Source: Amycolatopsis methanolica 239 (GTDB lineage: Bacteria; Actinomycetota; Actinomycetes; Mycobacteriales; Pseudonocardiaceae). Taken from it: a stretch of 64,000 nt of DNA. Location: assembly GCF_000739085.1 (NCBI RefSeq), contig NZ_CP009110.1, positions 2,232,001 through 2,296,000 of the forward strand. Reading direction: 5' to 3'. The notes beneath the pieces are model-generated. The model searched no databases. It had not been told where the DNA came from and saw only the letters and a list, made by a program, of their open reading frames with translations. This document shows positions 48,834-58,755 of this stretch, piece after piece (position 1 is the first letter of the stretch; each line of letters begins with the position of its first letter). The position numbers and the translations under genes were made by a program.

Positions 48834-49895
48834 CTACCGCGGCACGGTCGAGCCCCGCGCGACCAGCTTCGCCCGGAGCTGGATGTGCTGCGGCCGCCGG
48901 GGCGCGGCGCCGTCCGCGATGCGGTCCAGCAGTTGCCGTCCGGCGCGGGCGCCCAGGTCGTAGGTCGGCTGCTCCACGATCGTCAGCTCGGGCCGCACGA
49001 GCGTCGTCCACGGCTCGTCGTCGAAGCCGATCAGCGACAGCTGCGTCGGCATCCGCAGGCCGCGGTCCTGCGCCGCCCGGTAGGCGCCCGACGCGAGCAC
49101 GTTGTCGGTGCACAGCACGGCCGTCGGCGGTTCCGGGAGGTCCAGCAGCCGGTTCATCGCGTCGTAGGCCGATTCGCGGTCGTACCGCGCCGACGCCACC
49201 AGCCCGGCGTCGACCGGCAACCCCGCCGCCTCCAGCGCGCTCACGTACCCCCGCAGCCGCACCGCGCTCGGGAAAAGCCCGCGCCGCCGGTTGCCCGTGC
49301 GCACGCGCGCCAGCTGGTCACCGGCCTCCGTGATCACCCCGATCCGCCGGTGTCCCAGCTCCGTCAGGTGGCCGACGGCCTCCGCCGCCGCGTGGTCGTT
49401 GTCCACGGTGATGCTGTCGGCCTCCGGCACCCCGCTGACCTGCCGGTCGATGAGCACGACCGGCACCCCGGCGTCCATCGCCCGCCGCAGGTGCGCCCCC
49501 TCGCCCGGGCGCGCCGCCGCGACGATGACACCGTCCACCCGCTTCTCCGACATCACGCTGACCGCCCGCTGCTCGGCTTCCAGCACGCCGCCGGTGTTGG
49601 CCAGCAGCACCTCGAACCCGGCAGGCGACGTCACGTCGGTGATCCCGCGCAACGCGGTGGCGAAGAACGGGTTCGCCACGTCCGTCACCACCACGCCGAT
49701 CGTCTGCGTGCTGCCGGTGACCATGCTGCGCGCCAGCCCGTTCGGCCGGTACCCCAGCTCGGCCGCCGCGGCCAGCACCCGCTCCCTGGTCCGTTCGCTG
49801 ACCTGTCCGTACCCGCCGAGCGCGCGCCCCGCGGTCGCCGTCGAGACCCCGGCCGCGCGGGCCACGTCGATCAGCGAGGCTCCGTGCGTGGTCAC
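48834..49895 (-). CDS. LacI family transcriptional regulator
   Basis: 353 residues. HTH SLIDVARAAGVSTATAGRAL, hinge YRPNGLARSM, then a periplasmic-binding-like sensor domain (TIGVVVTDVANPFFATALRG, GVIVAAARPG, LSLIGFDDEPWTTLVRPELT). GTG 49895 has GGGGGAGG seven bases upstream; the frame is open for another 43 codons without homology. Divergent from the hyu operon, whose promoter region contains matching palindromes, so it is the likely repressor. Confidence 0.92.
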   Translation of the reverse strand: MTTHGASLIDVARAAGVSTATAGRALGGYGQVSERTRERVLAAAAELGYRPNGLARSMVTGSTQTIGVVVTDVANPFFATALRGITDVTSPAGFEVLLANTGGVLEAEQRAVSVMSEKRVDGVIVAAARPGEGAHLRRAMDAGVPVVLIDRQVSGVPEADSITVDNDHAAAEAVGHLTELGHRRIGVITEAGDQLARVRTGNRRRGLFPSAVRLRGYVSALEAAGLPVDAGLVASARYDRESAYDAMNRLLDLPEPPTAVLCTDNVLASGAYRAAQDRGLRMPTQLSLIGFDDEPWTTLVRPELTIVEQPTYDLGARAGRQLLDRIADGAAPRRPQHIQLRAKLVARGSTVPR

Positions 49896-49931: not shown

Positions 49932-49958
49932 CAAGTCTTGACTGAGACTACTACCGAC

Positions 49959-49998
49959 TGAGAAGGTTCTCACCCAACAGGTACTGAGAAGGTTCTCA
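49959..49998. promoter_or_regulatory. Two identical palindromes TGAGAAGGTTCTCA upstream of hyuA
   Basis: Copies at 49959-49972 and 49985-49998, 26 bp apart, each a 6-2-6 inverted repeat. A TTGACT (-35-like) lies at 49938, so the sites overlap or follow the promoter. The distance is about two and a half helical turns. Best candidate operators for the divergent LacI protein. Confidence 0.65.
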
Positions 49999-50017: not shown

Positions 50018-52063
50018 ATGACACTTAGGATCGGCGTCGACACCGGTGGCACGTTCACCGACGTCTGCGCCTTCGACGAGCAGACCGGGCGCCTCTACGT
50101 GCGCAAGGTGTCCAGCACCCCGGACGACCCCGGCCGGGCGATCGTGACGGGCGTGTCCCAGCTGCTCGCCGAGATCGGCGGACGCGACCTCGGCGACGTC
50201 GGCTACTTCGCCCACGGCACCACGGTCGGCACCAACGCGCTGCTCACCGAACGCGGCGGGCGCACCGGCCTGCTCACCACCGCCGGCTTCCGCGACCTGC
50301 TCGAACTGGGGCGCGGCCGCCGCCCGTCGCTCTACGACCTGCAGGCCGACAAGCCCGCCGCCCTGGTGCCGCGCGACCAGCGGCTCGAGGTGGACGAGCG
50401 GGTCCGCCACGACGGCCGGGTGGAGCGCGCCCTCGACCAGGACCAGGTCCGCGCGCTCGCCCGCGAGCTGCGCGAGCAGAATGTCGAAGCCGTCGCCGTC
50501 TGCTTCCTCTACAGCTTCGTCGACCCCGCCCACGAGCGGACCGCGGAACGCATCCTCGCCGAGGAACTGCCCGGCGTGCACGTCTCGGTGTCCTCGGCCG
50601 TGCTGCCGGAGTTCCGCGAGTACGAGCGTCTGTCCACAGTGGTCGTCAACGCCTACCTCGGCCCGGTGGTCGCGCGCTACCTCGCGAAACTGCGCACCAG
50701 GCTGGGCGAGCTCGGCCTGCGGGCGACCCCGCATGTCACCCAGTCCAACGGCGGCATCATCCCGTTCGAGACGGCCGAGCGGATGCCCTCCCGCATGGTC
50801 CTCTCCGGACCCAGCACCGGCGTGGTCGGCGCGGCCGAGATCGCGCGCGCGGCCGGCTACCCGGACATCATCACCTTCGATGTGGGCGGCACGTCCTCCG
50901 ACGTCTCGCTCGTCCAGGACGGCGTGCCCAAGTCCTCCAGCGGCACCGAGATCGACGGCAGGCCGGTGCGCGCGCCGATGCTGGACATTCATACCGTCGG
51001 CGCCGGTGGTGGTTCGATCGCGTGGATCGACGCGGGCGGCGCGCTGAAGGTCGGCCCGGGCAGCGCGGGCGCCGATCCGGGCCCGGCGTGTTACGGACGC
51101 GGCACGGAACCGACGGTCACCGACGCCAACGTGGTGCTGCGCGTCCTCAACCCGGAGTACCTGCTGGACGGGCAGATGAAGATCGACGCCGAGGCGGCCC
51201 GCCGGGCGGTGTCCACAGTGGCCGGTCCACTGGGGATGGACGTGCTCGACGCTGCGCAGGGGATCGTGCGGGTCATCACCGCCAACATGGCACGCGCCAT
51301 CCGCGTCATCTCGGTCCAGCGCGGCTACGACCCCCGCGACTACGTCCTGGTGCCCTTCGGCGGCGCCGGCCCGCTGCACGCGGTGCGCCTGGCGCGCGAG
51401 CTGGGCATGCGCACCGTGCTGGTGCCGGAGACACCGGGCGCTCAGTGCGCCGCGGGCCTGCTGATGACCGACATCCGCGCCGACTTCCTGCGCACCCACA
51501 TCTCGCCGCCCGACGAAACCACCGTCGCCGGCGTGTTCGCGGAGCTGGAGGCCGAAGCGACGGCGTGGCTGGTGGAGGAGAACGTCCCGGCCGAGCGCCG
51601 CCGTGTCGAGCGGTTCGCCGAAATGCGGTACGCGGGCCAGAACCACGAGCTGCCGGTGGCGGTCCCGGAGGGCGGGATCACGGCGGACACCGTCGCCCAG
51701 CTGACCAAGCGGTTCGCCGCCGAGCACGAGCGGATGTACGGGTACTCCTCGGCCGAGGACGAGGTCCAGGTGGTCACCTTCCGCCTGCGCGCGATCGGCG
51801 AGGTGGCCCGCGCCGAGTTGCACCGCGCCCCGCTCGGCGACGCCGACGCGAGCGCCGCGATCCGCGCCACCCGTGAGGTCTACCTGCCCGAAAGCGGCGG
51901 GTTCACCGAATGCCCGGTGTACGACCGCAGGCTCCTGGAACCCGGCCACCGCGTCGACGGCCCCGCGGTCGTCGAGCAGATGGACACCACCACGCTGCTG
52001 CTCCCCGGCGACGTCGCCGTCGTCGACGAGCTGCGCAACCTCGTCGTGACGGTGGGCCGATGA
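50018..52063 (+). CDS. hyuA: Hydantoinase/oxoprolinase family protein, HyuA-type subunit
   Basis: 681 residues. ASKHA ATPase signatures are seen: IGVDTGGTFTDVCAFDE at the N-terminus, GTTVGTNALLTE, FDVGGTSSDVSLVQDG near residue 290 and VGPGSAGADPGPACYG near 350. It pairs with HyuB to hydrolyse a cyclic amide (hydantoin, N-methylhydantoin or 5-oxoproline) with ATP; acetone carboxylase relatives also exist. First gene of a six-gene operon. The stop overlaps hyuB (ATGA). Confidence 0.92.
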   Translation: MTLRIGVDTGGTFTDVCAFDEQTGRLYVRKVSSTPDDPGRAIVTGVSQLLAEIGGRDLGDVGYFAHGTTVGTNALLTERGGRTGLLTTAGFRDLLELGRGRRPSLYDLQADKPAALVPRDQRLEVDERVRHDGRVERALDQDQVRALARELREQNVEAVAVCFLYSFVDPAHERTAERILAEELPGVHVSVSSAVLPEFREYERLSTVVVNAYLGPVVARYLAKLRTRLGELGLRATPHVTQSNGGIIPFETAERMPSRMVLSGPSTGVVGAAEIARAAGYPDIITFDVGGTSSDVSLVQDGVPKSSSGTEIDGRPVRAPMLDIHTVGAGGGSIAWIDAGGALKVGPGSAGADPGPACYGRGTEPTVTDANVVLRVLNPEYLLDGQMKIDAEAARRAVSTVAGPLGMDVLDAAQGIVRVITANMARAIRVISVQRGYDPRDYVLVPFGGAGPLHAVRLARELGMRTVLVPETPGAQCAAGLLMTDIRADFLRTHISPPDETTVAGVFAELEAEATAWLVEENVPAERRRVERFAEMRYAGQNHELPVAVPEGGITADTVAQLTKRFAAEHERMYGYSSAEDEVQVVTFRLRAIGEVARAELHRAPLGDADASAAIRATREVYLPESGGFTECPVYDRRLLEPGHRVDGPAVVEQMDTTTLLLPGDVAVVDELRNLVVTVGR

Positions 52064-53712
52064 CCCACACGGAAGGGAAGACCATGCAGGACCCCGTGCT
52101 GGTCGAGGTGATCGGCTCCGCGCTGTCGTCCATCGTGGAGGAGATGGGCGAGACGCTGGTGCGCGCGGCCTACTCGACCAACATCAAGGAACGCCGCGAC
52201 TGCACCGCGTCGCTGTTCGACGCCGCGGGCCGGATGCTCGCCCAGGACGAGGGCGGCTCGCCGCTGCACCTGGGCTCGCTGATGGGCATCGTCGACGAGA
52301 TCACCCGCCGCTACCCGGCCGGGACCATCGAGGACGGCGACACGTTCATCGGCAACGACCCGTTCACCGGCGGCGGTTCGCACCTGCCGGACATCGTGCT
52401 GGTGTCGCCGGTGTTCCTGGACGGCGAGATCACCGCGTGGGTGGCGAACCTGGCCCACCACGCCGACTTCGGGGACCGCGGCCACGCGCACATCTTCCAG
52501 GAGGGCCTGCGCATCCCGCCGGTGCGGCTGATGCGCCGGGGCGAGCTGCAGACCGACCTGTTCGAGCTGATCCTGCTCAACTGCCAGGTGCCGCACGAGC
52601 GCCGCGCGGACCTGCGTGCCCAGATCGCGGCGAACCGGCTCGCCGTCACCCGCTACACCGAGCTGGCCTCGCGGTACGGCCGCGACACGCTGGTGGCGGC
52701 GGCCGCGGCGCTGCTCGACTACACCGAGCGGCGCACCCGCGCGGCCATCGCGAAGGTCCCCAACGGCACGTACACCTTCGCGGACCGCTTCGACTGCCCC
52801 GAGCTGGACGACGAACTCGACCTCGGCGTCACCGTCACCGTGCACGGCGACGAGGTCACGTTCGACTTCACCGCGCCGCCGCAGGTCCGCGCCAGCGTCA
52901 ACGTCGTGTGGACCGCGCTGCACGCGGCGGTCTACTACTCGCTCAAGACCCTGGTGGACCCGGACATCATCCCGAACGCGGGCCTGCACCGGCCGGTCAC
53001 GATCAACGCCCCGCGCGGGTCGGTGCTCAACTGCGCCGAACCCGCCGCGGTCAACGGCCGCAGCGAGACCTGCCAGCGCGTGGTCGACCTGATCCACGGT
53101 GCCCTCGCCACCGCGGTGCCGGAAACCGTGACCGCGGCGAGCAACGGCGCCAACACCGGCGTGCACTTCTCCGGTGTGGACAGCCGCACCGGCCGCTACT
53201 TCGTCTACCTGGAGACGATCGGCGGCGGCTGCGGCGCGCGGCTGGGCAAGGACGGCATGGACGGCGTGCAGGTGCACATGACCAACACCAGCAACCTGCC
53301 GGTCGAGGCGCTGGAGACCGAGTACCCGCTGGTGGTCGAGGAGTACGCGCTCGTCGACGACTCCGGCGGCGACGGCCGCACCCGCGGCGGCATGGGCATC
53401 TTGCGCACGGTCCGCGTCGAGGAGTCCGACGTGCACTTCTGGCTGGACACCTCGCGGCAGCGCTCGCAGCCGTGGGGGCTGTTCGGCGGCGGGCCCGGCG
53501 CGAGCGCCAGCGTCGAGCTTGCCGAAGGGGCGCAACCGGTCGAGCACGGCTACACGCGCCTGCAGCCCGGCGACCGGGTGTCGATCCGGACCGCCGGGGC
53601 GGGCGGCTACGGGCCGCCGTCCGACCGTGACCCGGACCAGGTGCGCCGGGACGTCGCCGAAGGTCGGATCTCCGCCGAGCGCGCCCGGACCGTGTATGGG
53701 GTGGAGTCGTGA
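52060..53712 (+). CDS. hyuB: Hydantoinase/oxoprolinase family protein, HyuB-type subunit
   Basis: 550 residues. ERRDCTASLFDAAGRMLAQD, HLGSLMGIV, NDPFTGGGSHLPDI, LAHHADFG and the C-terminal TAGAGGYGPPSDRDPDQV are typical HyuB features. It forms the hydrolase with HyuA. ATG 52060 overlaps the hyuA stop; an ATG at 52084 with AGGGAAG just upstream could be the real start and would shorten it by eight residues. GTG of the next gene overlaps the stop. Confidence 0.92.
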   Translation: MTHTEGKTMQDPVLVEVIGSALSSIVEEMGETLVRAAYSTNIKERRDCTASLFDAAGRMLAQDEGGSPLHLGSLMGIVDEITRRYPAGTIEDGDTFIGNDPFTGGGSHLPDIVLVSPVFLDGEITAWVANLAHHADFGDRGHAHIFQEGLRIPPVRLMRRGELQTDLFELILLNCQVPHERRADLRAQIAANRLAVTRYTELASRYGRDTLVAAAAALLDYTERRTRAAIAKVPNGTYTFADRFDCPELDDELDLGVTVTVHGDEVTFDFTAPPQVRASVNVVWTALHAAVYYSLKTLVDPDIIPNAGLHRPVTINAPRGSVLNCAEPAAVNGRSETCQRVVDLIHGALATAVPETVTAASNGANTGVHFSGVDSRTGRYFVYLETIGGGCGARLGKDGMDGVQVHMTNTSNLPVEALETEYPLVVEEYALVDDSGGDGRTRGGMGILRTVRVEESDVHFWLDTSRQRSQPWGLFGGGPGASASVELAEGAQPVEHGYTRLQPGDRVSIRTAGAGGYGPPSDRDPDQVRRDVAEGRISAERARTVYGVES

Positions 53713-54734
53713 TCCGCACCGCGGTGATCGGTTTCGGGGTGGCCGGGCGGATCTTCCACGCCCCGTTCCTCGCCGCCGACGAGAACTACTCGCTCGACTA
53801 CATCGTCACCGGGAACGCGGAGCGGGCAGCGCAAGCCCGTGCCGAGTATCCACACGCGACGGTCGTGGCGACCCCCGACGAGCTGTTCGCCCGCGAACTC
53901 GATCTGGCCGTCATCGGCACGCCGCCGCCCACGCACGCGGGCCTCGCCGCGGAGGCGCTCCACCACGGCCTGCACGTGGTGGTGGACAAGCCGTTCGCGG
54001 TGACCAGCGCGCAGGCTGAGGCGCTGATCGAGCAGGCCGACCTCGCCGGCCGCATGCTCACGGTGTTCCAGAACCGGCGCTGGGACGGCGACTTCCGGAC
54101 CCTGCGGCGCCTGCTCGACGACGGTGAGCTGGGACGGGTGCACACCTTCGAGTCCCGGTTCGAGTGGTGGAAGCCACAGGGGCCACGTGACTGGAAGGCG
54201 CGCGCGGGCGCGGCCGACGGCGGCGGCATCCTGTACGACCTCGGCACCCACCTGATCGACCAGGCGATCCAGCTGTTCGGCCCGGTCGCGCACGTGCACG
54301 CCGACGTCCTCCGCCGCGGCGCGGGTGACGGCGACGACGACACGTTCCTCGTGCTGGCCCACGAAAACGGCACCCGGTCCCGGCTGTTCATGACCGGTCT
54401 CGCCGCGCTGCCCGGCCCGCGGTTCCACGTTCTCGGCGACCGGGCCGGCTACACGAAACACGGCCTGGACCCGCAGGAGGACGCGCTGAAGAACGGCGCC
54501 CGGCCCGGCGACGACGGGTTCGGTCACGAACCGCGGGACAACTGGGGCACGCTCGGCGTCCCCGGCGACACCCGCCGCGTCGAGCCGGAACCCGGGGATT
54601 ACGGCGAGTTCTACCGGCTGCTCGCCACCGCGATCGCCACCGGCGGCGCACCGCCGGTCGATCCGCGCGACGCGGTGGACGTCCTTCGCATCATCGAACG
54701 GGCACACGCCCAGAAGGGGGATCTTTCCCGATGA
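53709..54734 (+). CDS. Gfo/Idh/MocA-family NAD(P)-dependent oxidoreductase
   Basis: 341 residues. Rossmann motif AVIGFGVAGRIFHAPFLAA at the N-terminus, then IGTPPPTHAGLAAEALHHGL, VVDKPFAVT with the catalytic Lys of the E-K-P-type motif, and DLGTHLIDQ supplying the catalytic His. Members act on sugars and other polyols or imines. Fully embedded in the hyu operon by 4-bp overlaps on both sides. Confidence 0.88.
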   Translation: MIRTAVIGFGVAGRIFHAPFLAADENYSLDYIVTGNAERAAQARAEYPHATVVATPDELFARELDLAVIGTPPPTHAGLAAEALHHGLHVVVDKPFAVTSAQAEALIEQADLAGRMLTVFQNRRWDGDFRTLRRLLDDGELGRVHTFESRFEWWKPQGPRDWKARAGAADGGGILYDLGTHLIDQAIQLFGPVAHVHADVLRRGAGDGDDDTFLVLAHENGTRSRLFMTGLAALPGPRFHVLGDRAGYTKHGLDPQEDALKNGARPGDDGFGHEPRDNWGTLGVPGDTRRVEPEPGDYGEFYRLLATAIATGGAPPVDPRDAVDVLRIIERAHAQKGDLSR

Positions 54735-55822
54735 CCGCAGGCAAGTACGTCGTCGTGGTGGGCGGGGGCGTTCTCGGCGTCTCCACGGCCACGCATCTGC
54801 AGCGCGACGGCGTGGCGGTGACACTGGTGACCGAGGGCGAGCTGGCCGACGGCGCCTCCGGCCGGTCGCTGTCCTGGCTCAACTCCGCCGGGACCCGCTC
54901 GGCGGCCTACCACGCGCTGCGGATGGCAGGCATCGATCGCTACCGCACCCTCTTCGCGCAGGACCCCGGCCGCGAGTGGCTCCGCTTCGACGGCGCCCTG
55001 CACTGGAGCCTCGACGAGGACTCGATGCGGGAGCGGCACCGCGCCGAGGTCGCGCACGGCTACGACTCGAAGCTGGTCTCGGACCACCCCGGTCTCGACC
55101 CGGCCGCGTTCCCCGAGGTGGCCGTGCACAACCCGGGCGAGGGCTGGGTGTCCCTGCCGCACCTGATCGAGCACCTGGCCGCGGAGTTCACCGCGCTCGG
55201 CGGTGAGATCGTCACCGGGACCGGGCGCGCGAGCGTCACGACCGCCGGGGGAGTGGCCACCGGGGTGACCACCGAGGGCGGACAGCGGTTCGAGGGCGAC
55301 GCCGTCGTGGTGGCCTGCGGCGCCGCCACCCCGGGCGTCGTCGCGGAGCTGGGCGTGACCATCCCGGACGCGTCCCCGCTGTCGATGCTCGTGCTCACCC
55401 AACCCGCCGAGGCCGGCGTCAAGGCTGTGCTGAACACTCCGCGCGTTGCGCTGCGGCCCAACCCGGGTGGCACGTTCGCGCTGGACCACCACTGGTACGA
55501 GGACCGGATCACCGAGGCGGCCGACGGCACGTGCTCGATCGACGAGTCGGTGGTCAAGGAGCTCGCCGCCGAGGCCTCCGCGCTGCTGGACGGCGGGGTC
55601 ACGCTGACCGCCGCGTCCTGGAAGCTCGGCCGCAAGCCCATTCCCGGCGACGGCGAGCCGGTGTTCGGCGAGCTGTCCGCCGTGCAGCGGTGCCACGTCG
55701 CCTTCACCCACTCCGGCGCGACGCTCGGCCTGATCGCCGGCGAGCTGCTGGCAGGCGAGATCCGCACCGGCGAGCCCCACCCGATGCTGGAGCCCTTCCG
55801 GCCGGACCGCTTCCGGCCCTGA
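54731..55822 (+). CDS. DAO-family FAD-dependent oxidase/dehydrogenase
   Basis: 363 residues. FAD motif VVVVGGGVLGVSTATHL, GASGRSLSWLNSAGTR, and the C-terminal THSGATLGLIAGELLAGEI loop place it with D-amino-acid oxidase, glycine and sarcosine oxidases. It would oxidise an amino or N-methyl amino acid, a reasonable product of hydantoinase plus transferase action. ATG overlaps the upstream stop. Confidence 0.88.
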   Translation: MTAGKYVVVVGGGVLGVSTATHLQRDGVAVTLVTEGELADGASGRSLSWLNSAGTRSAAYHALRMAGIDRYRTLFAQDPGREWLRFDGALHWSLDEDSMRERHRAEVAHGYDSKLVSDHPGLDPAAFPEVAVHNPGEGWVSLPHLIEHLAAEFTALGGEIVTGTGRASVTTAGGVATGVTTEGGQRFEGDAVVVACGAATPGVVAELGVTIPDASPLSMLVLTQPAEAGVKAVLNTPRVALRPNPGGTFALDHHWYEDRITEAADGTCSIDESVVKELAAEASALLDGGVTLTAASWKLGRKPIPGDGEPVFGELSAVQRCHVAFTHSGATLGLIAGELLAGEIRTGEPHPMLEPFRPDRFRP

Positions 55823-55840
55823 AACCCGCAAGGAGATCCG

Positions 55841-57175
55841 TTGACCGACCACGACACGCGGGCGTCCGCGCCCGCCTCGACGGACCTGCGCTCGCGGCGC
55901 AAAGTGCTCATGTCCGCGATGCTCGGCAACGTCGTCGAGTACTACGACTTCGGCCTCTACGGCACTCTGGCCGTGATCATCTCCCGGCAGTTCTTCCCGG
56001 AGGGCAACGCGACCGCCGCGCTGCTGTCGACCTACGCGGGCGTGGTGCTGTCCTACGCGCTGCGGCCGCTGGCGGCGATCGTGCTGGGACCGCTGGCCGA
56101 CCTCAAGGGCCGCCGGTTCGTGCTGCTGCTGACGATCGCGGTGATGAGCGTCGGCACCGCCGGCATCGGGCTGCTGCCGACCTACGCGGCGATCGGGATC
56201 GCGGCGCCGATGATCCTGTTGTTCTGCCGGGTCCTGCAGGGCATCGGGGCCAGCGTGGAGTACACCACGGCCGCCAACTTCATCTTCGAGCACGAGCGCG
56301 GCAACCGGCGCAACTACCTCGCCGGGCTGTCCGTGGCGTCCACTTCGGTCGGTCCGCTGCTCGCCACCCTGGTGTCCTACCTGGTGATCTCCGTGATGCC
56401 GGCGCAGGCGTTCAACGACTGGGGCTGGCGCATCCCGTTCCTGCTGTCGATCCCGATGGCGCTGGTCGGCATCTACATCCGCCGTCACGTCGAGGAAACC
56501 CCGCAGTTCAAGGAAATGGCCGAACTGGCCGAGCGCAGCAAGGTCAAGCAGACCCCGTTCCGCACCGCCGTGCGCGAGCACTGGGGCGCGATGCTGCGCG
56601 CGATCGGCCTCGGCGCCGGGCAGCGCGTCGGCTCGTTCGTCATCCAGGCCTACTTCGTCACCGCGATGGTCAAGGCGGGGTTCGCCGAGAACAACGCGCT
56701 GCTCGCCTCCCTGCTGACCTACGCGATCGGTCCGATCCCAGCGATCTGGGGTGGCAAGCTCGCCGACAAGCACGGCGCGCGGATCCCGCTCGTGGTCGGC
56801 TACGGCCTGTTCGTCGTGCTGACCGTGCCGACGTTCCTCGCCATCGGGTCCGGCTCGCTGTGGCTGGCGGTCGTCGCGGTGGTCGCGTTCACCTTCATCA
56901 ACAACTTCGTCGGTGCGCCGCTGACCACGGCCTACGTGATGAGCTTCCCGGCCGAGGTGCGCGCCAGCGCGTCGGCGCTGAACTACAACATCGGCACCAC
57001 CGCGCTGGGCTCGACCGCGGGCCTCATCGCGGTGTGGCTGTTCGACCTCACCGGCACCAACGCCGCGTTCGGCTGGTACATGACGGCGATCTGCGCCGTT
57101 TCGATCCTGGTCGCCCTGTTCGCGATGCCCGCCGCGGTCGACGAGCAGCGCCGCAAGTCGCTGGCGGAGTCCTGA
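55841..57175 (+). CDS. MHS-family MFS transporter of the hyu operon
   Basis: 444 residues starting at TTG with AAGGAG five bases upstream. MLGNVVEYYDFGLYGTLA in helix 1 and GPLADLKGRRFVL in the 2-3 loop are the MHS signature. It probably imports the operon substrate with protons. The stop and the next ATG share a base (TGATG). Confidence 0.9.
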   Translation: MTDHDTRASAPASTDLRSRRKVLMSAMLGNVVEYYDFGLYGTLAVIISRQFFPEGNATAALLSTYAGVVLSYALRPLAAIVLGPLADLKGRRFVLLLTIAVMSVGTAGIGLLPTYAAIGIAAPMILLFCRVLQGIGASVEYTTAANFIFEHERGNRRNYLAGLSVASTSVGPLLATLVSYLVISVMPAQAFNDWGWRIPFLLSIPMALVGIYIRRHVEETPQFKEMAELAERSKVKQTPFRTAVREHWGAMLRAIGLGAGQRVGSFVIQAYFVTAMVKAGFAENNALLASLLTYAIGPIPAIWGGKLADKHGARIPLVVGYGLFVVLTVPTFLAIGSGSLWLAVVAVVAFTFINNFVGAPLTTAYVMSFPAEVRASASALNYNIGTTALGSTAGLIAVWLFDLTGTNAAFGWYMTAICAVSILVALFAMPAAVDEQRRKSLAES

Positions 57176-58755
57176 TGGACGCCCGCACCGCGGACGAGCT
57201 GGCCCGCTCGGCCGCCTACGGCCCGAAGGAGCCGGTCGAGGCCGAGCGCGGCATGGTGGTCACCTCGCACCCGCTCGCGGTGCGGGCCGGGCTCGACGTG
57301 CTCCGCGACGGCGGCACGGCCGCCGACGCGGCGCTCGCGGCAGCGGCGGCCCAGCTGGTGGTCGAACCACACATGACGGCGCTGACCGGCGGACTGGAGA
57401 TGCTGCACTGGGACGGCGCGAGCGGCGAGGCGAGCTACCTCAACGGCAACGTCGCCGCCCCGCTCGCGCCGCTGCCCGGGTTCACCGGGGCCGACCTGAC
57501 CACCGGCCGGGGCGTCCCCGTCCCCGGCTGGTGGCCGGCCTTCCGCGCCGCGCACGAACGGTTCGGCAGGCTGTCCCGCGACCGGTTGCTGCGGGACGCG
57601 ATCCAGGTCGCGCGGGACGGGTTCGCGGTCAACCCCTACCTGTTCGGCGAGATGTACGCGCACCGGGCCGAACTCGGGTGCCACGAGCAGGCCCGGGAGG
57701 CGTTCCTGCCGGGCGGCACCCTGGTCGCGCCGGGCGGCACCCTGCGGCAGGACCGGGTGGCGCGCACGCTGGAACGGCTGCGGGACGAGGACCTGGACTA
57801 CTACCTGGGCGACTTCGCGCGGGCGTTCGCCGCCGAGTGCGCCCGCGTCGGCGGGGTCATCACGACCGAGGACTTCGCCGCGTACGAGGCGCAGTGGTCC
57901 GAGCCGCTGCGTGGCACCTACCGGGACGTGGAGGTCGTGGCCTCCGCGCCACCGGACGACGGCGGGTGCCAGCTCATCGAGGCGCTCAACATGCTGGAGC
58001 TGGTGGACCTGCCGGGCCCGGCGCACGATTGCGTGGACACGCTGGACCTGCTGGTCGCCGTGCACAACGAGGTGTACTACGCGCCACCGCGCACGGCCGC
58101 CGCCGACCTGGAAACGCTGCTGTCCAAGGACTTCGCGGCCCGGCGGATGGACCGGCTCGGCGCGCTGCCGCGCGCCGTGCCGACGCCGGTGCCCGGCACG
58201 ATCCACATCACCGTGGTGGACGAGCGGCGCGACATCGCCTCGGTCACGCACTCCCACATGGCCTCGCCGTGGGTGAACGGGCTGTTCGCGGAGGGGTTCC
58301 AGCTCTCCGGTGGCGGGTCGTTCTTCCAGCGCTGCGTGCCGTGGCCGGGGGAGCGGGCCACCGTCTACCTGGCGCCCAACCTGGTGCTGCGTGACGGCGT
58401 GCCGGTCATCGCGTCCGGGTCGCCGTCGGTGTCGCTGGTGGCGTGCGTGCTGCAGAACCTGGTGAACCTTGTGGACTTCGGGATGTCCATCGAGGAGTCG
58501 GTGGCGGCGCCGCGCTTCGGGGTGCGGCCGCACGAACCGGCCGCCGGGTGGTTGCCGGGCGTCACGCTGGAGCACGGGTTCGCTCCGGGCGTGGACCGCG
58601 AGTTCCGCCGGCGCTGCGCCGAACGCGGGTTGTGGCTGCATGATCTCGGGCCGTGGCATTCGCTGACCGGCAACTTCGAGGGCATCACGTTGCACGGCGG
58701 GTTGCTGCGGTCCTGTGCGGACCCCCGCCGCAACGGCGGAGCGGAAGGGTACTGA
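57175..58755 (+). CDS. Gamma-glutamyltransferase family protein
   Basis: 526 residues, no signal peptide, so cytoplasmic unlike most GGTs. GMVVTSHPLAVRAGLDVLRD and GGTAADAALAAAAAQLVVEP form the N-terminal subunit start. The autoprocessing nucleophile is conserved as Thr342 in GTIHITVVD (the second Thr of the usual TTH is Ile), followed by GGGSFF instead of the common GI-LLNN segment. It may release or transfer a gamma-glutamyl-like acyl group or hydrolyse an amide (cephalosporin-acylase relatives). Last gene of the operon. Confidence 0.85.
   Translation: MDARTADELARSAAYGPKEPVEAERGMVVTSHPLAVRAGLDVLRDGGTAADAALAAAAAQLVVEPHMTALTGGLEMLHWDGASGEASYLNGNVAAPLAPLPGFTGADLTTGRGVPVPGWWPAFRAAHERFGRLSRDRLLRDAIQVARDGFAVNPYLFGEMYAHRAELGCHEQAREAFLPGGTLVAPGGTLRQDRVARTLERLRDEDLDYYLGDFARAFAAECARVGGVITTEDFAAYEAQWSEPLRGTYRDVEVVASAPPDDGGCQLIEALNMLELVDLPGPAHDCVDTLDLLVAVHNEVYYAPPRTAAADLETLLSKDFAARRMDRLGALPRAVPTPVPGTIHITVVDERRDIASVTHSHMASPWVNGLFAEGFQLSGGGSFFQRCVPWPGERATVYLAPNLVLRDGVPVIASGSPSVSLVACVLQNLVNLVDFGMSIEESVAAPRFGVRPHEPAAGWLPGVTLEHGFAPGVDREFRRRCAERGLWLHDLGPWHSLTGNFEGITLHGGLLRSCADPRRNGGAEGY

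What the first reader, a model, noticed from the sequence alone, without database searches (positions are those of the whole stretch)
50018..58755. LacI-controlled operon combining hydantoinase, oxidase, symporter and a cytoplasmic GGT-like enzyme
Six genes with overlaps or short gaps encode HyuA/HyuB, a Gfo/Idh/MocA reductase, a DAO-type oxidase, an MHS symporter and a GGT-family protein without signal peptide. Together they could import a compound, cleave a gamma-glutamyl or lactam bond, hydrolyse a cyclic imide with ATP and oxidise the amino acid. The combination does not match a pathway I know.
Basis: partly seen in the sequence, partly recalled or inferred. Interest (0 to 1): 0.66.

Follow-up and report, generated by a model that had tools for sequence, protein, structure and literature searches.

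The report
Operon for sugar-damaged (glycated) amino acids
This soil-bacterium operon most likely takes up and dismantles glutamine or glutamate that has reacted with sugar (Amadori compounds, including the closed-ring lactam form), by joining parts of two known opine-degradation toolkits and usually adding an unusual enzyme of the gamma-glutamyltransferase fold.

Summary
The six genes and the divergent LacI gene are real; the order is conserved in Amycolatopsis, Pseudonocardia and Prauserella. Two identical 14-bp palindromes, found nowhere else in the 7.24-Mb genome, sit in the shared promoter. The combination has precedents. The DAO oxidase, the LacI protein and the operator form match the soc operon of Agrobacterium pAtC58 (deoxyfructosyl-glutamine, an Amadori compound): 52% identity to SocD, 41% to SocR. 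HyuA forms a clade (100/100) with the HyuA near AgaA on an octopine-type Ti plasmid; HyuA and HyuB are 55% identical to that pair. Agropinic acid is a sugar-alcohol lactam of glutamate (recalled). A Microbacterium version of the cluster has an AgaA-like importer plus fructosamine-type kinase and deglycase, again pointing to an Amadori compound. Best explanation: catabolism of N-(1-deoxyfructosyl)-5-oxoproline and/or fructosyl-glutamine; HyuAB opens the lactam with ATP, the SocD-like oxidase splits sugar from glutamate. The 'GGT' keeps the catalytic Thr but lacks the E. coli gamma-glutamyl-binding residues; two relatives lack the gene, so it is accessory. I propose an amidase on glycated glutamine. 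Substrate and GGT role are inferred, not shown. New variant of a known kind.

The parts
48834..49895 (-). LacI-family repressor, SocR-like, divergent
   Evidence: Pfam LacI + Peripla_BP; 41% identity to pAtC58 SocR; shares the helix-turn-helix stretch A.AxRxLGGYGxVS with SocR and the Arthrobacter, Klebsiella and Pantoea regulators, but not with the Microbacterium one. GTG start read from the sequence.
49938..49942 (+). TTGAC box, possible -35 element
   Evidence: Seen in 11 of 11 intergenic regions printed; promoter role is inference.
49959..49972 (.). operator copy 1, TGAGAAGGTTCTCA
   Evidence: Binding by the LacI protein not tested.
49985..49998 (.). operator copy 2, identical, 26 bp from copy 1
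   Evidence: Klebsiella and Pantoea soc-type promoters carry two TGAGACCGGTCTCA sites, pAtC58 one plus one with a single change.
50018..52063 (+). HyuA-type ATP-binding subunit, aga-like (AgaF position)
   Evidence: Pfam Hydantoinase_A; 54.6% identity to the Ti-plasmid HyuA of the aga region; joined to it at 100/100; motifs DTGGTFTD, DVGGT, GADPGP present.
52060..53712 (+). HyuB-type metal subunit, aga-like (AgaG position)
   Evidence: Pfam Hydantoinase_B; 55.2% identity to the Ti-plasmid HyuB; segments RRDC, [ST]HLPD, AHH[AS]D present in 5 of 5 sequences aligned, matching by spacing the metal ligands named for CapB.
53709..54734 (+). Gfo/Idh/MocA oxidoreductase, SocC-like position
   Evidence: 50-54% identity to the Gfo of Klebsiella and Arthrobacter soc-type operons, only 25% over 192 residues to pAtC58 SocC.
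54731..55822 (+). FAD-dependent oxidase, SocD-like (amadoriase)
   Evidence: Pfam DAO; 52.5% identity to pAtC58 SocD, 58-63% to three oxidases in soc-like loci; only match in the genome at E<=1e-10.
55841..57175 (+). MHS-family symporter, presumed importer
   Evidence: TIGR00883, 306 bits, below its cut-off of 443; a Dpp-type ABC importer stands in the Microbacterium cluster.
57175..58755 (+). GGT-fold Thr hydrolase without E. coli-type gamma-glutamyl site (accessory)
   Evidence: Pfam G_glu_transpept 225 bits, below the NCBIfam gamma-glutamyltransferase cut-off (186.7 of 357.85); residue table; no match in L077 and L078.

Best explanation
The operon is a soc-type Amadori (fructosyl-amino acid) catabolic operon that also holds an aga-type ATP-dependent lactamase. 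Proposed route: (1) the MHS symporter imports the glycated compound; (2) HyuAB, using ATP and metal, opens the five-ring lactam of N-(1-deoxyfructosyl)-5-oxoproline (fructosyl-pyroglutamate) to N-fructosyl-glutamate, as its Ti-plasmid relatives are reported (recalled) to do on agropinic acid; (3) the GGT-fold hydrolase hydrolyses the gamma-amide of the open-chain form, fructosyl-glutamine (santhopine), to the same intermediate; (4) the SocD-like FAD oxidase splits fructosyl-glutamate into glutamate and glucosone plus H2O2; (5) the Gfo/Idh/MocA enzyme reduces the sugar product. The SocR-like LacI represses the operon from two TGAGAAGGTTCTCA operators. Shown: gene content, homologies, conserved order, palindromes, HyuAB motifs, residue differences of the GGT-like protein. 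Inferred: substrate, every reaction, reaction order, operator binding and direction of regulation; step 3 is the weakest.
For: DAO is 52.5% identical over 364 residues to pAtC58 SocD and LacI 41% to SocR. The pAtC58 gene set beside repABC is where PMC4231840 places socR-socABCD for deoxyfructosyl-glutamine (passage). Klebsiella, Pantoea and pAtC58 soc-type promoters carry paired TGAGACCGGTCTCA-like sites, the window paired TGAGAAGGTTCTCA sites. HyuA joins the Ti-plasmid, Paracoccus and Terrarubrum HyuA at 100/100, apart from five paralogues of its own genome. The binding protein in the same Ti stretch is AgaA (6hlx, E=0). The Microbacterium version has DAO, SIS protein, PfkB kinase, HyuAB and GGT-like: the kinase scores best to fructoselysine 6-kinase (7e-49), the SIS protein to fructoselysine-6-P deglycase (2.7e-29), both below the curated cut-offs; its SBP is closest to AgaA among PDB sequences (4e-80, next 6.4e-38). 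Among 200 family genomes, 13 of the 14 with the HyuB also have the SocD-like oxidase.
Against: No enzyme, transporter or repressor of the window was assayed. The Gfo protein is only 25% identical to pAtC58 SocC. The window has neither SocAB nor AgaABCD, nor FrlB/FrlD; the best FrlB-type match in the genome is 28%. The Ti oxidase near HyuAB is only 25% identical to the window DAO. That the Ti HyuAB pair opens agropinic acid is recalled, not read. G053 has a distant HyuAB/DUF885/GGT-like/Dpp cluster with no soc gene found; G056 has the HyuB without the SocD-like oxidase, and G060 and G104 an oxidase (39%, 48%) without the HyuB, so the parts also occur apart. The best PDB hit of the DAO is a 'glycine/D-amino acid oxidase' (7fgp), not a named amadoriase. 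The operator pair is absent from L078 and Microbacterium; the Arthrobacter and pAtLMG292a pairs are imperfect.
Confidence: 0.66

Rival explanations
1. The operon degrades mannityl opines (agropinic or mannopinic acid) themselves, not Amadori compounds.
For: HyuAB are close to the pair in the AgaA stretch of the Ti plasmid; the Microbacterium importer is AgaA-like.
Against: The oxidase is SocD-type, not like the Ti oxidase (52% against 25%); regulator and operators are SocR-type; the Microbacterium cluster adds fructosamine-type kinase and deglycase, which act on fructosyl, not mannityl, compounds (established knowledge of FrlB/FrlD).
Confidence: 0.1
2. A cytoplasmic gamma-glutamyl cycle: the GGT-like enzyme cleaves gamma-glutamyl compounds and HyuAB is a 5-oxoprolinase.
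For: Pfam families; GGT-like and HyuAB lie in one cluster in three lineages.
Against: E. coli residues R114, Q430, D433, S462, S463, G483 and G484 are replaced or missing in 10 of 10 cluster members (R114, Q430 and D433 are also lost in 5 of 5 other GGT-family relatives there, so this is weaker than it looks); HyuA joins the aga clade; the SocD-like oxidase and SocR-like operators stay unexplained; two relatives lack the GGT-like gene.
Confidence: 0.08
3. The operon uses glycated peptides, or gamma-glutamyl/pyroglutamyl peptides carrying a sugar; the GGT-like enzyme is a peptidase on them.
For: In G053 a DUF885 protein lies between HyuB and the GGT-like gene, followed by a Dpp-type importer; the Microbacterium SBP belongs to family SBP_bac_5, which includes peptide-binding proteins.
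Against: G053 is distant (HyuA 42%, HyuB 32%, GGT-like 44%) and no soc gene was found there; the window importer is an MHS symporter, a class not known for peptides (recalled).
Confidence: 0.12
4. Creatinine/N-methylhydantoin route: HyuAB as N-methylhydantoinase and DAO as sarcosine oxidase.
For: The best PDB match of HyuA and of HyuB is a chain named N-methylhydantoinase; DAO superfamily.
Against: No creatinine deaminase or N-carbamoylsarcosine amidase among the seven genes; the SoxA-type model gives 20.7 bits against a cut-off of 479.65; soc/aga relationships as above.
Confidence: 0.04

Closest known systems
soc operon (socR, socABCD) of Agrobacterium fabrum C58 plasmid pAtC58, deoxyfructosyl-glutamine catabolism
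   Same: Divergent LacI repressor; Gfo-family and DAO-family genes adjacent; SocD 52% and SocR 41% identity; paired palindromes of the form TGAGA-N4-TCTCA, one of the two pAtC58 copies with a single change.
   Different: The window has an MHS symporter instead of SocAB, a Gfo of a different branch (25%), and adds HyuAB and the GGT-like gene.
aga (agropinic acid) region of the octopine-type Ti plasmid NC_002377
   Same: HyuA and HyuB 55% identity, HyuA in one clade, beside a DAO-family gene and a Dpp-type importer whose SBP is AgaA; acts on a sugar-derived lactam of glutamate (recalled).
   Different: AgaA-type ABC importer; oxidase only 25% identical; no GGT annotated in the stretch. Soc-like sites with one mismatch occur near LacI genes at the SIS/kinase end of the stretch, more than 12 kb from HyuAB, none beside HyuAB.
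frl fructosamine pathway (FrlB deglycase, FrlD kinase)
   Same: Same substrate class; FrlB/FrlD relatives are inside the Microbacterium version of the cluster.
   Different: Not in the window; the oxidase route (amadoriase) stands there. PMC12632257 names both routes (passages).
Caprolactamase CapAB / 5-oxoprolinase / hydantoinase HyuAB
   Same: Same two-subunit ATP-dependent lactam-opening enzyme superfamily; nucleotide motifs and, by spacing, metal-ligand segments present.
   Different: 605 and 267 bits against cut-offs of 1000 for CapA and CapB.
Gamma-glutamyltransferase (E. coli Ggt)
   Same: Pfam family and the position of the nucleophile Thr391.
   Different: No hydrophobic N-terminus; R114, Q430, D433, S462/S463 and G483/G484 replaced or missing.

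Membership tests
soc-type Amadori operon | SocD-type FAD oxidase (amadoriase) | tested here: met
   52.5% identity over 364 residues to pAtC58 SocD; sequence only, activity not tested.
soc-type Amadori operon | SocR-type LacI repressor with paired operators | tested here: met
   41% identity, shared HTH stretch, paired palindromes; binding not tested.
soc-type Amadori operon | SocC oxidoreductase | tested here: inconclusive
   Gfo gene next to the oxidase; 25% to pAtC58 SocC, 50-54% to the Gfo of Klebsiella and Arthrobacter soc-type operons.
soc-type Amadori operon | SocAB amino-acid-type ABC importer | tested here: not met
   An MHS symporter is the only transporter among the seven genes.
soc-type Amadori operon | use of deoxyfructosyl-glutamine | not testable with these tools
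   Needs a growth or enzyme test.
aga-type lactam opener (AgaF/AgaG) | HyuA/HyuB of the aga lineage | tested here: met
   HyuA tree of 16 rows, 100/100; HyuB by 55.2% identity only; the lineage is named after the Ti pair in the AgaA stretch.
aga-type lactam opener (AgaF/AgaG) | AgaA-type importer beside it | tested here: not met
   Not in the window; met in Microbacterium (P0008 to AgaA, 4e-80).
aga-type lactam opener (AgaF/AgaG) | hydrolyses an N-glycosyl or N-mannityl pyroglutamate | not testable with these tools
   Needs an enzyme assay.
Gamma-glutamyltransferase | nucleophile Thr (E. coli T391) | tested here: met
   Thr in 9 of 10 cluster members, Ser in L031.
Gamma-glutamyltransferase | gamma-glutamyl-binding residues R114, Q430, D433, S462, S463 and GG483-484 | tested here: not met
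   None kept in 10 of 10 cluster members; N411 aligns as N beside a gapped insertion and cannot be judged. Residue roles are recalled. R114, Q430, D433 are also absent from the five other GGT-family proteins aligned.
Gamma-glutamyltransferase | N-terminal signal peptide (periplasmic enzyme) | tested here: not met
   Hydropathy of the N-terminus, a simple measure.
frl fructosamine kinase/deglycase pathway | FrlB and FrlD genes | tested here: not met
   None among the seven genes; best FrlB-type match in the genome 28% (FrlD not searched there). Present in Microbacterium.

The most novel reading that the evidence does not exclude
A dedicated actinobacterial pathway for glycated pyroglutamate. 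It would combine an ATP-dependent lactamase for N-fructosyl-5-oxoproline with a new subfamily of GGT-fold Thr hydrolases that deamidate fructosyl-glutamine, where the lost alpha-amino and alpha-carboxyl contacts make room for the sugar. Either activity would be a new enzyme function.
Probability: 0.32. Interest if true: 0.68.

Novelty: new variant of a known kind. Interest (0 to 1): 0.55.

Why it matters
Amadori compounds of glutamine occur in decaying plants, crown-gall tumours and tobacco roots (PMC4231840 and PMC8262997, passages), and glutamine derivatives can close to a lactam. If the reading is right, this is a second chemical form of the same nutrient with its own enzyme set, found in Amycolatopsis, Pseudonocardia, Prauserella and Microbacterium. 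It gives a precise substrate to test for a branch of the large HyuAB superfamily and for a GGT-fold branch that is likely to be misnamed. Fructosyl-amino-acid oxidases and lactam-opening enzymes also have uses in assays of glycation.

Tried and rejected
Diketopiperazine hydrolysis was considered because HyuAB, peptide-type importers and a DUF885 protein occur in relatives; it was dropped when the soc and aga relationships appeared. The creatinine, 5-oxoproline and mannityl-opine routes are listed as rivals. Plasmid GGT relatives in seven loci (L037-L043; 7 of 100 records) are at most 32.4% identical to the window protein; no HyuAB is annotated in six of the seven stretches, and the seventh (L041) carries no gene annotation. 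They did not help. Structure predictions were too poor to use: DAO pLDDT 43, GGT-like 53; no fold search was run on them. Paper searches for this operon: searches found nothing; (10 papers; 14 papers) I judged from the listing, opening one of the first (PMC8453981) and one of the second (PMC12632257); neither set showed this gene combination by title or abstract. Related searches: 53, 84, 98, 99 (20 of 58 papers listed), 105. PDB code 7FGP gave no paper. Primary papers on soc and on the SocA and AgaA structures are not held, so details of socABCD beyond PMC4231840, of agaF/agaG, of 6hlx's ligand and of deoxyfructosyl-oxoproline are recalled. Corrections made on rechecking: my note said 11 cluster members in the GGT table, the number is 10; the losses of R114, Q430 and D433 are shared with the five other GGT-family proteins, so I lowered the novel case from 0.35 to 0.32; the Ti stretch does hold soc-like sites with one mismatch, away from HyuAB.
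Full report
WHAT IS THERE. The window is G000:C1:2232001-2296000 of a 7,237,391-base single-contig genome that searches place near Amycolatopsis: the closest named relatives of the GGT-like protein are A. tucumanensis at 95%, A. deserti and A. thermalba at 92%. The size agrees with what I recall for A. methanolica 239; no call confirms that. Seven genes form the unit: lacI on the minus strand (48834-49895), then hyuA, hyuB, gfo, dao, mhs and ggt-like on the plus strand (50018-58755), with overlaps of 1 to 4 bp and one gap of 18 bp. Families were checked with NCBIfam and Pfam. None of the seven proteins reaches the curated cut-off of an NCBIfam model shown: HyuA scores 605 bits to CapA with a cut-off of 1000, and the GGT-like protein 186.7 bits with a cut-off of 357.85.

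CONSERVATION. A scan brought 11 named loci. In 7 of the 11 (L020-L025, L029: Amycolatopsis and Pseudonocardia) all seven genes keep order and strand. L026 (Prauserella salsuginis) begins inside the cluster at DAO-MHS-GGT, with LacI-HyuA-HyuB-Gfo on another contig. L030 (P. rugosa) holds a GGT fragment near a contig end, with the other six genes and the start of the GGT-like gene on another contig. L027 and L028 are the Microbacterium version. Three further genomes of the same genus (L032-L034) keep all seven genes in order. The GGT-like protein is rare: 12 of 200 family genomes (E<=1e-60), 7 of 397 order genomes (E<=1e-80) and 1 of 396 phylum genomes, the own one (E<=1e-80); two genomes of the own genus lack it (G113, G198).

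OPERATORS. The lacI-hyuA gap holds two exact copies of TGAGAAGGTTCTCA, 26 bp apart. No other site with at most one mismatch to TGAGAANNTTCTCA exists in the genome; the shuffle expectation in the window is 0.01. Of 11 intergenic regions compared (the window, seven named loci and three G genomes), 10 carry two exact copies and the Pseudonocardia one carries one exact and one with a single change. L056, L077 and L079 also carry pairs. L078 has no exact TGAGA-N4-TCTCA site, and the four Microbacterium stretches have none with up to one mismatch.

THE SOC HALF. Searching the DAO against plasmids gave 267 records. The four read show LacI, an amino-acid ABC importer, then Gfo in three of four, then DAO. 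The same set stands beside repABC on pAtC58, where a review places socR and socABCD for deoxyfructosyl-glutamine, also called santhopine, an Amadori compound (PMC4231840, passages). The window DAO is 52.5% identical to pAtC58 SocD, 58.6% to Klebsiella, 62.7% to Arthrobacter and 63.3% to Pantoea; LacI is 41% identical to SocR. The Gfo is 50-54% identical to the Klebsiella and Arthrobacter ones but only 25% (192 residues) to pAtC58 SocC. Klebsiella and Pantoea promoters hold two exact TGAGACCGGTCTCA sites, pAtC58 one plus one with a single change, pAtLMG292a one, and Arthrobacter an imperfect pair. The window regulator shares the helix-turn-helix stretch A.AxRxLGGYGxVS with SocR and the Klebsiella, Arthrobacter and Pantoea regulators; the Microbacterium LacI does not have it. 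[quoted passage not shown] the passages seen do not mention HyuAB or GGT.

THE AGA HALF. HyuB's best plasmid matches (40 of 443 records listed) are at 54-58% identity in Paracoccus, Terrarubrum, Martelella, Roseivivax, Rhizobium and many Agrobacterium plasmids. On NC_002377 the pair lies next to a DAO-family gene and a Dpp-type importer, whose binding protein is AgaA itself (6hlx, E=0), about 5 kb from hyuA. That this region serves agropinic acid, and that its HyuAB pair (agaF, agaG) opens the lactam, is recalled; what I saw here is only the title of a cited paper on agropinic acid import (PMC6683767 reference list) and a figure legend naming an agropinic acid uptake operon on another plasmid (PMC6341043). 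A 16-row maximum-likelihood tree puts window, Amycolatopsis, Pseudonocardia, Prauserella and Microbacterium HyuA together and joins them to the Ti, Paracoccus and Terrarubrum HyuA with 100/100 support, away from five paralogues of the own genome (five of the eight further matches; one of the five partial) and from the G053 protein; several outgroup rows have long branches and the root is for drawing only. Nucleotide motifs of HyuA and metal-ligand segments of HyuB correspond to those named for caprolactamase (PMC8453981, passages); CapA and CapB themselves were not aligned.

THE MICROBACTERIUM CLUE. In Microbacterium the cluster reads DAO, SIS protein, PfkB kinase, HyuA, HyuB, LacI (minus), Dpp-type importer, GGT-like (in M. 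resistens the DAO is cut by the contig end). No Gfo or MHS match was found there. In strain MYb66 the kinase's best NCBIfam match is fructoselysine 6-kinase (7e-49, 166.6 bits, cut-off 247) and the SIS protein's is fructoselysine-6-phosphate deglycase (2.7e-29, 102 bits, cut-off 430); in the PDB the SIS protein's best matches are a SIS domain protein and a putative fructose-amino-acid-6-phosphate deglycase, tied at 2.7e-41. In M. resistens the importer's binding protein is closer to AgaA than to any other PDB sequence (4e-80; next 6.4e-38). So one cluster holds an agropinic-acid-type importer, a lactam opener of the same lineage, a SocD-type oxidase (49% to pAtC58 SocD) and a fructosamine-type kinase/deglycase. 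An N-fructosyl lactam of glutamate is the simplest compound that needs all of them. Its existence as deoxyfructosyl-oxoproline in the chrysopine opine family is recalled.

THE GGT-LIKE PROTEIN. Against E. coli Ggt, 10 cluster members were aligned with three plasmid relatives and two own-genome relatives. The nucleophile Thr391 is Thr in 9 of 10 and Ser in L031. R114, Q430, D433, S462, S463, G483 and G484 are kept in 0 of 10. This must be read with the controls: R114, Q430 and D433 are also absent from 5 of 5 non-cluster relatives, so those losses are not special to the cluster; E. coli Ggt is the only proven GGT in the alignment. Special to the cluster in that alignment are Tyr at S463 and SV in place of GG483-484. 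N411 cannot be judged because of an insertion. The gene is not essential to the unit: L077 (G111) has LacI, paired operators, HyuA, HyuB, a gene that looks like an MFS transporter (no family search run), Gfo and DAO; L078 (G029) has HyuA, HyuB and MHS divergent from DAO, Gfo and LacI; neither has a GGT-like match. In 200 genomes of the family (same handles in each call), 14 have the HyuB at E<=1e-180, 15 the SocD-like oxidase at E<=1e-60 and 12 the GGT-like protein at E<=1e-60. 13 of the 14 HyuB genomes have the oxidase; 11 of the 12 GGT-like genomes have the HyuB, and the twelfth, G053, has a more distant HyuAB beside it. The GGT-like protein is thus tied to HyuAB, while HyuAB and the oxidase can do without it. 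The amide of the open-chain fructosyl-glutamine is the bond best placed for such an accessory Thr hydrolase, but this is inference. In G053 the company differs (DUF885 protein and Dpp importer, no soc genes found), which keeps a peptide substrate open there.

VERDICT. The paper searches made for it (the results of 54 and 85 judged mainly from listings) showed no description of this combination in the held library, which lacks most subscription journals. New variant of a known kind.

Noticed in passing
L031:6897-19419: In G053 a distant HyuAB pair is followed by a DUF885 protein, a GGT-like protein (44%, Ser in place of the nucleophile Thr) and a Dpp-type importer, with no soc genes found: a related system with perhaps another substrate.
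   Followed up: partly
L058:4956-17699: A Klebsiella oxytoca plasmid carries an frlB/frlD cluster and a soc-type cluster (LacI, ABC importer, Gfo, DAO) within about 13 kb; DAO hits occur in 20 Klebsiella plasmid records, several from human samples.
   Followed up: no
L061:1966-3329: On the Ti plasmid, soc-like palindromes with one mismatch lie next to LacI genes beside the FrlB/FrlD-like genes, so the operator type may reach beyond soc.
   Followed up: no
L056:8542-11818: In Prauserella salsuginis the LacI-HyuA-HyuB-Gfo part is followed by what looks by sequence like a TRAP-type binding protein and fused TRAP permease (no family search run), while DAO-MHS-GGT lie on another contig.
   Followed up: partly
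L065:5325-6332: The Gfo-family SocC of pAtC58 is only 25% identical to the Gfo of the window, although the oxidases beside them are 52% identical: the reductase seems exchangeable.
   Followed up: partly
L062:2095-12692 and L064:1-12457: Paracoccus and Terrarubrum plasmids carry aga-like sets (FAD oxidase, Dpp-type importer, HyuAB at 54-58% identity) outside Agrobacterium.
   Followed up: partly
L079:99-726: The GGT-like gene of Prauserella rugosa gives two adjacent match pieces at a contig start and its remainder lies on another contig: a broken gene or an assembly edge.
   Followed up: no
L080:8411-12200: G056 has a HyuAB pair at 59-61% identity without a SocD-like oxidase, near what looks by sequence like a biotin carboxylase gene.
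   Followed up: no
window 50018-52063: The genome holds eight further HyuA-like matches (E<=1e-20), two of them overlapping neighbours that may be one gene, whose substrates are unknown.
   Followed up: no
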